From Phytophthora quininea (lineage: Eukaryota > Oomycota > Peronosporomycetes > Peronosporales > Peronosporaceae), in NCBI GenBank assembly GCA_011947345.1, contig JAAVTG010000519.1, forward strand, positions 310,001-374,000: a DNA stretch of 64,000 nt, given 5' to 3'. The stretch's first letter is position 1. Each line of letters opens with the position of its first letter. Positions 26,983 through 35,365 of this stretch are shown one piece after another. Under the pieces are notes generated by a model that was not told the origin of the DNA, did not search any database, and was given only the letters and a program-made list of their open reading frames with translations. The translations under genes and the position numbers were made by a program.

Positions 26983-29900
26983 TCACTCCTCCGGCAACGC
27001 CATGTCTGCCTGGTTGCGCAAGAAATCCACGAACCGCATCCCCGTGTCCAAAAACTCGCAGGCGAAACCTGGCAGTAAACGGCGCTCCGGCGTAAGTGGC
27101 GGCATGCGGAACTCAGCTTCCATTTTGTCCCGCACACTTAGAAAGCCGTCAGCAGGATTGCGGTCGGGAATTCCGAACTCGCGGATGCGCATCAGGGAGA
27201 ATCGCGTCTCCGTCTGTGGGTTGTAATACGTAGCGCCGCGAACACGCCGCACCGTTGCGATGCACGAAGGAGTCTCGCCAGCGTCTAGCAAATGTCGACT
27301 AATGCGTACGTTGTCCCGCCTGTCATCGCAAAACTCAATCACGCCCCGACCATCGGGAGCTTTACGACAGCACTCGTCCAGCTTTTTGTAAAGCGGATCG
27401 GTCACAGGTAACTCTTCCGTCGTGGAAACGTAGAAGCGGACGTCAGGTGTCGAGTCCATCCTGTGAGCTTCTTCATCCATTTCCTGGCGCATCTTGAGCG
27501 TCGTGCTAAACCACCGCGACGGTCGAGTGGAGACTCGAATGAGCTGCAACTCGACTGTCAAACGCACGTTATACTCAAATCCTTGGTAAACGATGGACAC
27601 TTGGTATCCATCAGACTCCTCAATCGGCTTCATCCCCAAGCGCGTATTTGCATACTCTTTTGCCCACGGAGCGTGCTGTTGCTCGATCATCGAGTAGAAC
27701 GAATGAGTGACTCCCTTGTCACCGCGTGCCACCGTATTTGCATTCCGCAAGATCATTCTCGGTCTCCGCTTTCGTCGAGGTCCCCACCGCCTCCACCAGT
27801 GTCGCTATCATACTCGCCATAGTCTTCGTCGTCTTGCCCCCATCCATCTTCCTGTTCTTCCCCAGAGTATTTCCCCATAAAACGCCTGCTTCTCCCTCCT
27901 CCTCGGCATTTTTCGCTTCATCTTCGCCAGCTTCAACTTGGTTCGACATCGCCTTATCTGCCGCTGCTTCGGCACGCTGCTTCTGCTTTGCGGTGAGGAC
28001 CGACTCGTATAGCTCCCGCGCTGTCCGCCCTCGCTCGAACTCATCTTCCAGTTTTTTGATGCTAGCCGACATGATCGTCTCGGCATCGAATGAGCGCGGT
28101 AAGTTAATCAAGTAGTGGTGTCCAAAGCGAATAAAAGCCTTAGCCTGCGCTACACCTGGGTTGAGACGTTCGTAGCGCGACAGCTTGATCATTTGCTGGA
28201 TAAACTTGGCGCAAAGGTTGCTCCAGCGTGCTCGTACCATTGCCGTCCGTTCATAAAGCAGATGAGATGACCCTGATGGAGCTGAATGTTGTTATGCTCG
28301 ACGTGGCGCCCTCCGAAATAGTCTTGGAACCCAATTTTTCACCTTGTGATACCGCTCCCTCGAACAGCACTAAGCTGGATCCTTCGCGGTGAAAGGACCG
28401 ATTCGAACGGTGTGCCATACGAGTCCCTAGCTCTTGCTCAATCTTTTGGAGATGCTCTTCAATTCGTCGCACGGCGTCACCGGATCCTGTAATCTCAGCA
28501 ACATACAGATCGGAACGGAAACAATTTGGATGGAATTTAAACACTAGACGCGCCGTGCTGTCAGCTCGGGTTTCAAACAGAATCTTCCGCGAGAAAAAGT
28601 CCTTGGCTTCGTGGATCCGCGAGCTCAAAGCATGACTAAGCGTAATTTTGCTGGCCTGCTGATCGCGGTTCGTCAGTAAGTATTGGATATCGCCCTTTGC
28701 GATGACCAGCTGATGCAATGCGATATAGCACTCGGATCGAAAAACCGTAATGGCCTCTGCATCCAGCTGCGTGTCGTTTTCAGGGTCGAATGGGTCTGTG
28801 AAACCATAATCGGCTGCTGGTGTGGATAGCTTTGAGTAGAAGTCCAAGAATGAAAGCAGGACGTCAGCAGCCGAAAGCTCCTCAACGTCATGATTTCCTG
28901 ATACTAAACGTGTGAGCAACTTCGTCCAGAAACTAATCTCAGCGTTGATGTCGTTGGTCTTTAAAATGTCAGTCAACGTGATCTCTCCGCCACTAATCGG
29001 CCGGACGAAGTTATGGTCGGTACAAAAACGCAGGAACAGCCAAATGAACCCAATTGGACTGAACATGTTCTGCCCTCCACCCGATCGACGCCGAATCAAC
29101 CCCACACACTTGCCCCACTTCACTAAGAAATACACGCAGGGCCAAAAGAACTTGTATCTCTCCATGTACGTTCGGAACAAACGGGTTTTCACTGGGCCAG
29201 AGGAAAACTTGCACATTTCAACAGACCACTGCTGAAACGAGAACGATAAAAGAGGGACACGAATACCATCTTTAAGTTCGATATTGCCGGCTGAAACCTC
29301 CAGAGTCTTTGCAATAGCTTTGAGCGAACCGTGTCGAGACTTGCAGCGAACCAAAACATCCAAATCCGACTGTTTTTCAAACGTGAGCAGCGCTGAGGAG
29401 CCAAAGAGTACGAGGTCTAGTTCTTTTTCTTCAAACACCCAGGCATCTCAGAGCGCAGTGAACTCACCGCCACCAAACGATCAAAGAAGTCCGACAGCAA
29501 CTCTTCAGTGTTGGTGACAATCTCGGCCAGCATGCAGAGCTGAAGCTTTGGGATCGTTTCCTGATACGGCGCTGATCGCACGGGAGACCACGCTTGGTAA
29601 TGTGTGTTATGAATATTCGAGCGCTTGTTCGTAACAAGGTAGTCGATGGCGATCCACGGAAAACTTATACAACGCGTCGACGCATCCTTGTCATCACAAG
29701 CGACGAAATACATTGCTGCTGCAAACTTCGCTGCTTCGTTTGGCGTGGACACGATGCTGTCGAATTGGGCTCGAAATGAGGCTTGGAGGGTGTAAAAGGA
29801 CTCTTTACATCGTTCCCCAAAGCGGAAGTAGTCGGCTTTATACACGTTTGGTGGCTCCACAATCATTCCTGTAGTGAGCTCCGTTTCCACATGCGCCCCT

Positions 29901-32900: not shown

Positions 32901-35365
32901 TCACTCTAGCCAGAATGCATGTCTGCAACTGCCTGTCAGCTCCACGAAATATACCACCCAGTGCAATGCTATAAACTTTGTCAGACCTGGCGTCATATAT
33001 CGCACGCAGGGACAATTCAGGCACTTCTGCTGAAGATGCTTCGCTCAAGTCGTTTTCTTCGTGGTAATTCCCCATCAACTTTTCACTTGTACCTTCGAAG
33101 ATAATTGAGAGGCAGCAAGGTTCGCGTTGTGCACCAGTCGCTTCTCGTTTTCAACCAGCCGTTGGTTGTGCTCGCGCCCCATTGCGGAACAAAAGATGAT
33201 GAAAACGCTGTGCCGATGTCGTGCTCGGCCACGACTCTGAATGAGACTCGTCACGCCAATCACACCATCAAATTGAATCACGAGTGAGCATTCCGGCACG
33301 TCAAGACCTTCCTCTAACACATTCGTTGCCACCAAAAGTCGGATACGCCCTTGTCTGAATCGATCCAGGGTGGGCTTCTGCTCCTCCTCCCACGACATCC
33401 TTTCGTACGAATTATGGCCGACAAATCGTGTGGGGTTTAACTCACGCAGCTCTTCCAGTTACTCCATCGCCTTGGCCAAAAGAATCGCTGTTTTGCGGCG
33501 TCGGACAAATACGATTGCCCGGGATTCGTGAGTAAAGCGCGAATTTCTGATGCAATCCGCCACCATATGCACGCGATTTGAAATGCTGGCCCCTCCAAAA
33601 GATTCTACTGGGAAGCTCGTCAGCGCTGGATGTAAAATGGCGTTGAATGACGACTCGACCAATTTGAGTGTACGAGCCCCCTTTGGTGAACGCGACACCT
33701 TCAAGTCGTTGAACACACAGACCAGCGCTTCAGCAACGGACCCAGCACCATGAATGCTCAGGTTATAGAAGCTTGAAGCGACTTTCAACAAGTGCTTGAG
33801 AATTAGCTCGAGGTCTGATGGCAGTCGCGCACTCTCCTCTGCTCCGTTCAACTCCACTTCATCGTTATTGTCTCGTATCCTTTTTCGAGCTTGTCCTTGC
33901 AACAGCCGCAGCTTTGCCATAAATTGAGATAGCTCCATGTCGTTGGTGTCGTAGTTGGTCTCGAATGGCATAACTTGCCCACTCATCAGGTTCGATATCT
34001 GGGCGTAGAATGACTGGATGTAATGCTTCAAACCACCACGCAGCCTACGTTCTTCTTCTGTCTCATTCACCGTCATCCATTTAGCCTCTTTCGGGATAAA
34101 ACTCCCCTCCAGATCAGCAGCAGCAATCGTGGGAGTGTTGATCACCCCGTTAAACACTTTGGCAAGCTTTTCCAACGCCATCTTACCTGACGTTTCACGC
34201 ACTGCCTCGCCGAAAGGCGAAGCCGTCAACGCAAGAATGTGTGGGCGATTTCGGGCGTCAATAGTTGCTAACTGTTTTAGGAGGTCGCAGTACGGGTGGC
34301 TCCCAGTGGCGTGGTGGGCTTCGTCAAATATCATCACGCTATAATCCGTGATCTTGGTCCGATTATTGAACAGCAGATTCAGAAAATTCTGCGGAGTCAC
34401 GACAAGAGCATTCTTGTCGCCATTGACATCAATTACAGGAGTCGTCGCCACAGATCCACGTCCACGCTGTCCCGACATCTCAGCCACTTGGAAGTCGGAC
34501 TCACGTCGAATATATGCCGCCTGCTGCGATACCAATGGCCCTGTTGGTACAAAAATACCACTAATTTATTCGGGTTGAGATGTTTCATCTCTTCCATCAC
34601 TTTAATGGCCACAAGCGTCTTCCCACAACCTACCATCGCCAAGCATATCATTAAAAACAAGCTCCTCTCAATAAAACACACACACAATCCGTCGCACCTG
34701 TTGGAAGGTACACGATTGTGTTCTCCAGCAGCGCCGATAGCGTCAGTTCCACTTGATACTGCCTCAACTTGGACATCCGCCCGCTTGGGGTGAAGTGGCT
34801 CTTGATCGTCTCCACCGTCGGCAGTACCACGGGGATCACAGGCTCCTCAACTTCTTCTTCGGATACTCGCGACTCCAAGAGTTCCTTGAGCAATTGGGTC
34901 TTCAAAGGCATCGCCAACTCCCTCAGCTGCGGTAAAATGGCCCCCATTTGCGTCCACGGATCCCTCAAACCTCGGCTGCTTGTCCAGCACAATAATGCAG
35001 TCCTTGGAGTTCAGTAGTAGTAGCGACACTGGAAATTCGTCCAAGAACCCTTCAGAGCCCACCTTGGTCTGACAATTGCTGCAGAGCAGCTCGAACGGCA
35101 TTCGATCCCGTTTAAACGCGTTTTGTGTGCGGATCTTGATGAAGTGGAGCTTGGGCGCGACGTTTTCTCGACTGCGAAGGATCCAGCTCTCGTCTGTCTC
35201 TTGGTTCCCTGTTTCGCGAGGCTCTTCTGTTAAGAAGCTCTTGATGAGTGTCAAGTGGACGCCCGTGGCGTTCTCCAGCAGGAACGCGAGCTGCGAGTGG
35301 CGCGCCACTTGCGCGTCGCAGTGGCGGCAGACGATTCCCCACGCTTCGCCGTCGCTCGCGCCCAT
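26983..35365 (-). CDS. Helicase-RdRP-nucleotidyltransferase fusion (RNA-silencing RDR)
   Basis: Cellular RNA-dependent RNA polymerase for siRNA amplification, predicted about 2,750 residues. Order from ATG 35365: a domain with two CxxC pairs; a Dicer/RIG-I-type SF2 helicase (PTGCGKT across the 34630-34697 intron, DEAHH near 34320, RGRARH near 33220); a linker; the intron 32056-32115; the RdRP core with catalytic DLDGD at 30466-30480; a Pol-beta nucleotidyltransferase (FGSSALL...SDLDVLV near 29360, then a PAP-like core RTYMERYKFF and LVKWGKCVGLI); an acidic linker; and a ~240-residue unknown C-terminal domain. Ten frame slips (near 34941, 34551, 33080, 32555, 30083, 29438, 28335, 28237, 27879, 27756), all at homopolymers or a GC run, and two in-frame TAA (33459, 31795) interrupt it. 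The helicase-RdRP fusion is known in oomycetes and Dictyostelium. The fused nucleotidyltransferase is unusual. It may be one gene with assembly errors, or a young pseudogene. Confidence 0.85.

What the first reader, a model, noticed from the sequence alone, without database searches (positions are those of the whole stretch)
26983..35365. One polypeptide joins a Dicer-type helicase, an RdRP and a Cid-type nucleotidyltransferase
Read from the minus strand, the region encodes in order a Zn-ribbon-like head, an SF2 helicase (PTGCGKT, DEAHH, RGRARH), an RdRP with DLDGD, and a Pol-beta/PAP-type nucleotidyltransferase (FGSSALL, SDLDVLV). In S. pombe the RDRC complex uses separate Rdp1 and Cid12; Tetrahymena Rdr1 also binds separate nucleotidyltransferases. 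Helicase-RdRP fusions are known in oomycetes and Dictyostelium. A covalent RdRP-nucleotidyltransferase fusion is, as far as I know, not generally described, and would couple RNA copying to 3'-end tailing or clearing.
Basis: partly seen in the sequence, partly recalled or inferred. Interest (0 to 1): 0.88.

Follow-up and report, generated by a model that had tools for sequence, protein, structure and literature searches.

The report
RNA copier fused to tailing enzyme
A gene-silencing enzyme that copies RNA carries, in the same protein chain, a motor, an enzyme that adds letters to RNA ends and a domain shaped like RNA-cap phosphatases; the arrangement is found in many eukaryotes, although the copy in this window is damaged.

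Summary
Minus-strand pieces from 35365 to 26983 match, in order, one ~2,690-aa protein of Phytophthora: RIG-I-CTD-like head, RLR/Dicer-type helicase, RdRP, Cid1/TUT-type nucleotidyltransferase (NTase). Of 137 listed proteins with a full RdRP, 96 carry the NTase; 81 of these also have the helicase, in the same order. Bearers include oomycetes, dinoflagellates, chytrids, green plants, cnidarians, dipterans and bivalves; 79 of 97 NTases keep the catalytic residues. I saw no report of it in the papers searched.

The window copy does not encode one polypeptide: about nine unexplained frame changes, two in-frame stops, a solo-LTR-like insertion. Two more copies in this genome lack the insertion and those stops; many frame changes recur in all three although dN/dS is ~0.32, so those are probably technical or very recent.

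Most likely mechanism (inferred): a single-chain counterpart of the RdRP-NTase-helicase complexes of yeast, Tetrahymena and worms, coupling 3'-end tailing to copying and to capture of 5'-triphosphate ends.

The parts
34976..35365 (-). N-terminal Cys-rich head, RIG-I C-terminal-domain-like; first ATG at 35365
   Evidence: Pfam RIG-I_C-RD 18.3 bits here, below the 25.6 cut-off; 27.6 and 26.6 bits, above cut-off, at the N-terminus of coral relatives P0124 and P0125
34698..34944 (-). linker and start of helicase up to PTG of the P-loop
   Evidence: tblastn of P0003 residues 139-221
34630..34697 (-). presumed 68-nt GT-AG intron inside the P-loop
   Evidence: sequence; exon sides read P-T-G / C-G-K-T; splicing not tested
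33081..34633 (-). SF2 helicase, RLR/Dicer type (CGKT, DEAHH, RGRARH); frame change near 34.55 kb, in-frame TAA 33459-33461
   Evidence: profile A1 versus Dicer, RIG-I and MDA5 chains
32065..32311 (-). 247-bp insertion, solo-LTR-like, flanked by GTTT; absent from both other copies
   Evidence: 15 matches in the genome, itself included
32292..33096 (-). region between helicase and RdRP; frame changes near 33.09 and 32.54 kb
   Evidence: tblastn, 49 and 63% identity
30061..32064 (-). RdRP N-terminal part and catalytic core; DLDGD 30480-30466; in-frame TAA 31795-31797
   Evidence: Pfam RdRP 8.8e-151; tblastn 73% over 665 aa; PDB RDR2 6e-209 with profile A1
29423..30088 (-). RdRP C-terminal head/linker up to the NTase; frame changes near 30.07 and 29.43 kb
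   Evidence: tblastn 72%; the length between RdRP and NTase is conserved in relatives
28668..29435 (-). nucleotidyltransferase, palm plus PAP-associated part (model residues 5-260); FGSS from 29405, SDLD 29369-29358, third acid Glu 29219-29217
28425..28658 (-). KH-like beta-alpha-alpha-beta-beta-alpha element after the NTase (model residues 264-341)
   Evidence: order of secondary structure in the model only; the fold search rows span 1-263 and did not test it
26983..28338 (-). C-terminal domain with RESC1/Cet1 tunnel fold; frame changes near 28.33, 28.21 and 27.8 kb
35862..37285 (-). upstream neighbour: HIT-domain gene, in pieces
   Evidence: merged with RDR in gene models P0004, P0025 and P0094, so the neighbourhood is conserved there
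16285..22460 (-). downstream neighbour on the same strand: ZNFX1-type SF1 helicase with ZnF_RZ, in overlapping frames; the CCCH piece (20628-22460) is only presumed to belong
   Evidence: PDB 9q9z ZNFX1 1.7e-105 versus NAM7 3e-28; ZnF_RZ 6.3e-23, CCCH 4.5e-6; the CCCH piece and 16970-17785 do not match ZNFX1 chains by themselves

Best explanation
The gene is the oomycete RDR of RNA silencing, and belongs to a widespread family of single-chain RNA-dependent RNA polymerase complexes: RIG-I-CTD-like head, RLR/Dicer-type helicase, RdRP, TENT-type nucleotidyltransferase, KH-like element, and a C-terminal domain of RESC1/Cet1 fold. Shown here: order, homology, conserved catalytic residues and co-inheritance of RdRP and NTase. 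Inferred: the helicase and head engage the RNA; the NTase adds untemplated nucleotides to the 3' end of a template (for example a cleaved transcript), which lets the RdRP next to it start copying there; the C-terminal domain holds the 5'-triphosphate end that an RdRP makes; the duplex then goes to Dicer and Argonaute. It is the covalent counterpart of S. pombe Rdp1-Cid12-Hrr1, Tetrahymena Rdr1-Rdn (both recalled) and C. elegans RRF-1/RDE-3. The copy in the window is a damaged allele: solo-LTR-like insertion and two private stops.
Against: No activity is shown for any domain; tail sequence, substrate and order of steps are inferred. The full NTase residue set is missing in 18 of 97 (oysters, some corals and others; a few may be truncated or misaligned), so activity is dispensable in some lineages. 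P. infestans sRNAs mapped to two transposons were 5'-monophosphate and judged not RdR products (PMC3522703 passages). With 10 own-genome TENTs added, the fused NTases are not one clade: starred branches force two changes and 0% of 200 bootstrap trees have one clade, though the AU test does not reject one (p 0.336; a very long row is among the added ones). The C-terminal domain has no sequence-level match to Cet1 or RESC1; the match is by predicted fold only. dN/dS 0.32 is above the CAD control 0.12, which itself rests on 8 synonymous and 3 nonsynonymous differences; some relaxation is possible.
Confidence: 0.55

Rival explanations
1. Same fused enzyme, but the NTase acts on the 3' ends of the RdRP's own products or of rejected templates (protection, or a mark for decay), not on templates before copying.
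For: The closest folds are uridylyl- and adenylyltransferases, which as I recall act on many RNA classes; covalent linkage fits product tailing equally well.
Against: In C. elegans the RdRP-linked NTase tails the template.
Confidence: 0.25
2. The NTase is a catalytically idle scaffold or RNA-binding module in most members, kept for assembly.
For: 18 of 97 lack the full catalytic set; in most oomycetes Glu stands at the third acid.
Against: 79 of 97 keep G[ST]/DxD/[DE], and no oomycete is among the 18 exceptions; in a 14-sequence alignment across distant taxa the NTase Gly, Ser and both Asp are invariant.
Confidence: 0.15
3. The fusion is an artefact of gene models that join neighbouring genes.
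For: Some models do merge the upstream HIT gene with RDR (P0004, P0025, P0094).
Against: Uninterrupted ORFs on contigs barely longer than the ORF and a Trinity transcript named complete; near-constant spacing in 93 of 96.
Confidence: 0.03
4. On the window copy alone: all its frame breaks are true decay, so RDR is dead in this genome.
For: Many frame changes recur in all three copies; two stops and a solo-LTR-like insertion are private to the window copy; the match of C896 ends before the end of the gene; the window RdRP has a longer branch (0.21) than P. nicotianae (0.064) or Bremia (0.081).
Against: dN/dS 0.31-0.32 between the window and the other copies; 4 mismatches at 405 positions invariant in the other oomycetes used, 14 orthologs 0-5 of 396-410; an OSBP-type gene nearby shows the same kind of break.
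Confidence: 0.2

Closest known systems
Oomycete RDR with DEAD-box helicase (Bollmann et al. 2016, PMC4791657; Results and Discussion read)
   Same: Same gene family: N-terminal DEAD and Helicase_C domains and RdRP; the paper also names Dictyostelium, Hydra and Nematostella
   Different: The text holds no 'nucleotidyl', 'transferase' or 'tailing'; NTase and C-terminal domain are unreported there. It says RDRs of S. parasitica (Saprolegniomycetidae) lack the helicase, yet an Aphanomyces protein has helicase, RdRP and NTase (P0130)
S. pombe RDRC (Rdp1-Cid12-Hrr1; recalled)
   Same: RdRP, Cid-type NTase and helicase working together
   Different: Separate subunits; Hrr1 is an SF1 ZNFX1-type helicase (recalled), here the fused helicase is SF2. 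A ZNFX1-type gene lies ~4.5 kb downstream of this RDR
C. elegans RDE-3/MUT-2 with RRF-1 (PMC12265681, PMC11347159 passages) and DRH-3 (recalled)
   Same: Same functional trio: NTase, RdRP, RLR-related helicase
   Different: Separate proteins brought together by scaffolds; UG-tail specificity is not known here
Trypanosome RESC1/RESC2 and TUTases (fold matches; biology recalled)
   Same: NTase fold nearest T. brucei TUT4 by Z; C-terminal fold nearest RESC1
   Different: No RdRP in those proteins; separate proteins; matches are by predicted fold

Membership tests
Eukaryotic cellular RdRP (PF05183) | full domain with DLDGD catalytic motif | tested here: met
   503.9 bits over profile 1-573 of 582; DLDGD present
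RLR/Dicer-type SF2 helicase | motifs GKT, DExH, QxRGRxR and profile match to RIG-I/Dicer chains | tested here: met
   motifs (P-loop split by presumed intron); profile A1 matches Dicer (4.9e-85) and RIG-I (4.2e-71) chains
TENT (non-canonical terminal nucleotidyltransferase) | palm with GS, DxD and third acid | tested here: met
   window GS/DD/E; 79 of 97 fused NTases intact
TENT (non-canonical terminal nucleotidyltransferase) | palm followed by PAP-associated part in TUTase arrangement | tested here: met
TENT (non-canonical terminal nucleotidyltransferase) | adds nucleotides to RNA 3' ends | not testable with these tools
   needs biochemistry
RIG-I C-terminal domain | Pfam RIG-I_C-RD above cut-off | tested here: inconclusive
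   below cut-off in the window (18.3), above in P0124 and P0125 (27.6, 26.6; cut-off 25.6)
Cet1/TTM-type RNA 5'-triphosphatase | tunnel fold | tested here: met
Cet1/TTM-type RNA 5'-triphosphatase | paired metal-binding glutamates in first and last tunnel strands (recalled) | tested here: inconclusive
   presumed first-strand pair not conserved (position 68 Glu in 6 of 77); last-strand Glu in 72 and 53 of 77; strand assignment by eye
S. pombe-type RDRC | separate Rdp1, Cid12 and SF1 helicase subunits (recalled) | tested here: not met
   one chain in relatives, SF2 helicase; it may work like an RDRC but is not one
KH domain | KH fold match | not tested
   only secondary-structure order seen; rows span 1-263

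The most novel reading that the evidence does not exclude
Helicase-RdRP proteins across eukaryotes are typically complete one-chain RNA-silencing replicases: they recognise, unwind, tail, copy and hold both ends of the RNA (TENT at the 3' end, RESC1/Cet1-like domain at the 5'-triphosphate end). This architecture existed early in eukaryotes, and the separate RdRP-NTase-helicase complexes of yeast, ciliates and worms are split or rebuilt versions of it.
Probability: 0.33. Interest if true: 0.9.

Novelty: new variant of a known kind. Interest (0 to 1): 0.76.

Why it matters
How RdRPs choose and start on templates is an open question in RNA silencing; in worms a separate NTase marks the template. 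A natural fusion, found in several eukaryotic groups with nearly constant spacing, suggests that tailing and copying belong together and gives one expressible protein on which to test it. The C-terminal tunnel-fold domain adds a testable idea about the 5' end of RdRP products. The NTase is easily missed in Phytophthora because its Pfam scores are below cut-off (P0003: 18.5 bits against 27, 15.2 against 21).

Tried and rejected
Rejected: (1) the 32.3-32.06 kb extra stretch as an intron: it looked like a GT-AG intron, but both other genomic copies lack 247 bp there and it is a repeat with GTTT on both sides. (2) The window copy as an old pseudogene: positions invariant in other oomycetes are kept and dN/dS is 0.32. 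The longer RdRP branch (0.21 against 0.064 and 0.081) fits an outside lineage as well as relaxation. (3) Gene-merge artefact (see rivals). (4) Plasmid origin: one 1.2-kb stretch (29000-30200) has no match in plasmids. (5) A sequence-level match of the C-terminal domain: none. A first comparison of copies misaligned the missing end of C896 and gave higher ratios for pairs with C896 (0.46, 0.72) and 0.33 for C84; one search replaced it. The codon set includes 4 window and 2 C84/C896 stop codons; the two beyond the named TAAs lie in the middle segment, where a matched piece runs past its frame, and were left out of the counts.

Literature on RDRC/ZNFX1, RIG-I/TENT and RESC (searches failed; 111 cap reached). 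The ZNFX1 query in the own genome did not complete. 158 and 582 proteins matched but only 120 of each are listed; counts rest on those lists (215 distinct proteins), of which 137 have an RdRP match over 450 aa. The NTase and tail profiles were grown within these lists, so they are not independent of them; precomputed or scanned Pfam NTase hits exist for part of them only. Trees used chosen subsets: 83, 54, 46 and 49 rows; near-copies and partial rows were dropped, and in 77 and 129 catalytically degenerate rows too. NTase presence needs 8 changes on the RdRP tree, 4 after leaving unscored nine rows that end too early or show the C-terminal domain. Checking the draft changed numbers and wording; the probability of the novel case was lowered from 0.35 to 0.33 because the tree tells more against one origin than first written.
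Full report
What is in the window. On the minus strand between 35365 and 26983 there is no single open frame. Pfam on ten separate stop-to-stop pieces gave a DEAD helicase, Helicase_C, a near-complete RdRP (503.9 bits) and a weak nucleotidyltransferase. tblastn with P0003 of Phytophthora nicotianae (2686 aa, found) placed 12 pieces in order over the whole stretch in all three minus frames, at 49-88% identity, 72-77% in the long helicase, RdRP, linker, NTase and last pieces. 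The coding order is: Cys-rich head, helicase, a less conserved middle (49 and 63%), RdRP, linker, NTase, C-terminal region.

Breaks. A 68-nt GT-AG stretch splits the P-loop at 34697-34630 and reads as an intron. About nine further frame changes have no intron-like explanation, and there are TAA codons in frame at 33459-33461 and 31795-31797. The genome (87.2 Mb, 993 contigs) holds two more RdRP loci, on C84 and C896, about 97-98% identical to the window in DNA over the gene. They share many of the frame changes, have some of their own, and show no stop in the matched pieces that cover the two window stops; the match of C896 ends before the end of the gene. Both lack 247 bp present in the window at 32065-32311; this piece matches 15 places in the genome (itself included), some of them on one contig a few kb apart, and is flanked by GTTT on both sides, the look of a solo LTR.

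Has the window copy been under selection? At 405 columns that are invariant in the other oomycete orthologs used, it differs at 4; 14 orthologs treated the same way differ at 0-5 of 396-410. Window against C84: 78 synonymous and 83 nonsynonymous differences in 2625 codons, dN/dS 0.32; linker+NTase 13 and 13, 0.31; C-terminal part 0.45. Window against C896: 0.31 over 2501 codons. A neighbouring CAD-type gene gives 0.12, but from only 8 and 3 differences, and it is much less diverged between these copies (dS 0.008 against 0.043). A frame truly lost before the copies split would not look like this, so the shared breaks are more likely technical, or bypassed, or very recent. A nearby OSBP-type gene also changes frame inside its domain with too little room for an intron. 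The solo-LTR-like insertion and two stops are private to the window copy, so this allele looks truly damaged.

The family. Two protein searches list 120 proteins each, 215 distinct. An NTase profile grown from the window NTase finds the domain in 82 of the 120 and in 97 of all 215. Of 137 proteins with a full RdRP, 81 have helicase+RdRP+NTase, 15 RdRP+NTase, 11 helicase+RdRP, 30 neither; the order is the same in 81 of 81. Of the 11 helicase-RdRPs without NTase, nine end within 200 aa of the RdRP, about where or before an NTase normally begins. The gap from RdRP to NTase is 170-235 aa in 93 of 96. By source names bearers include Phytophthora, Bremia, Albugo, Pythium, Globisporangium, Aphanomyces; Effrenium and Prorocentrum; Physocladia, Cladochytrium, Zopfochytrium; Riccia, Mesotaenium, Ostreobium; Nematostella, Acropora, Hydractinia, Rhopilema; Clunio and Bradysia; oysters. 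Several sit on contigs of over 20 Mb. P0006, P0124 and P0132 show single uninterrupted frames at contig or transcript level.

Evolution. RdRP and NTase trees give the same main groups. Against four standalone TENTs the 42 intact fused NTases are one clade, 99/96. With ten own-genome TENTs added, starred branches force two changes and 0% of 200 bootstrap trees have one clade; the AU test does not reject one clade (p 0.336), and one added row has a very long branch. Presence of the NTase needs 8 changes on the RdRP tree, 4 when nine rows that end too early or keep the C-terminal domain are unscored. A single old fusion with losses fits but is not shown; transfer between lineages and more than one fusion are not excluded. 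The window lies outside the P. nicotianae+Bremia pair (SH-aLRT 98) and inside the group with Nothophytophthora.

Literature. In the listings, and in sections or passages of PMC4791657 (Results and Discussion; word counts 34, 136), PMC10080066, PMC3522703, PMC6396948, PMC10062562, PMC12265681 and PMC11347159, I saw no RdRP-NTase fusion. 'nucleotidyl' occurs nowhere in the main text of PMC4791657, PMC6396948, PMC10062562 and PMC3522703. Helicase-RdRP fusion is known (PMC4791657). Most subscription papers are not held and later searches failed, so absence from print is not proved.

Function. The best reading is a one-chain RdRP complex in which tailing prepares the template. The comparison with yeast and Tetrahymena complexes is recalled; the worm model is from passages read. 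A ZNFX1-type helicase gene lies downstream on the same strand (16285-22460; ZNFX1 1.7e-105), which is suggestive because Hrr1 of the yeast complex is, as I recall, of this type; conservation of this neighbourhood was not tested.

Noticed in passing
16285-22460 (-): ZNFX1-type SF1 helicase with ZnF_RZ about 4.5 kb downstream of RDR on the same strand, in overlapping frames; ZNFX1/Hrr1 relatives work with RdRPs elsewhere (recalled).
   Followed up: partly
32065-32311: Solo-LTR-like 247-bp repeat with GTTT on both sides inside a gene of the machinery thought to silence transposons; absent in two other copies.
   Followed up: yes
10123-12965 (+): OSBP/START/PH gene whose Oxysterol_BP domain continues in another frame with little room for an intron.
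   Followed up: partly
35862-37285 (-): HIT-domain gene upstream of RDR; in three Phytophthora gene models it is merged with RDR, so the order is conserved there.
   Followed up: partly
P0130 (Aphanomyces): A Saprolegniomycete protein with helicase, RdRP and NTase, although PMC4791657 found none in S. parasitica; its RdRP falls in a group with dinoflagellates, Rhopilema and Hydractinia, not with the other oomycetes.
   Followed up: partly
P0141-P0213: Proteins of about 1150-1380 aa, most with source tag ena or lgn and some on contigs over 1 Mb, with helicase and only part of an RdRP; nature unknown.
   Followed up: no
P0063, P0070: Dipteran (Bradysia, Clunio) helicase-RdRP-NTase proteins; insects were believed to lack RdRPs (PMC6396948 passage, which names Clunio).
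   Followed up: no
P0036, P0046, P0047, P0049: Oyster RdRPs keep the NTase and tail domains but lack the NTase catalytic residues and a detectable helicase.
   Followed up: partly
G000:C84 and C896: Further RDR copies on ~58-kb contigs, possibly alternative haplotypes; several Argonaute matches also come in pairs with equal scores.
   Followed up: partly
PMC6396948 (amphioxus BL02069): An amphioxus RdRP is reported with an AAA_12 domain, the SF1 helicase family that also matches the ZNFX1-type neighbour here.
   Followed up: no
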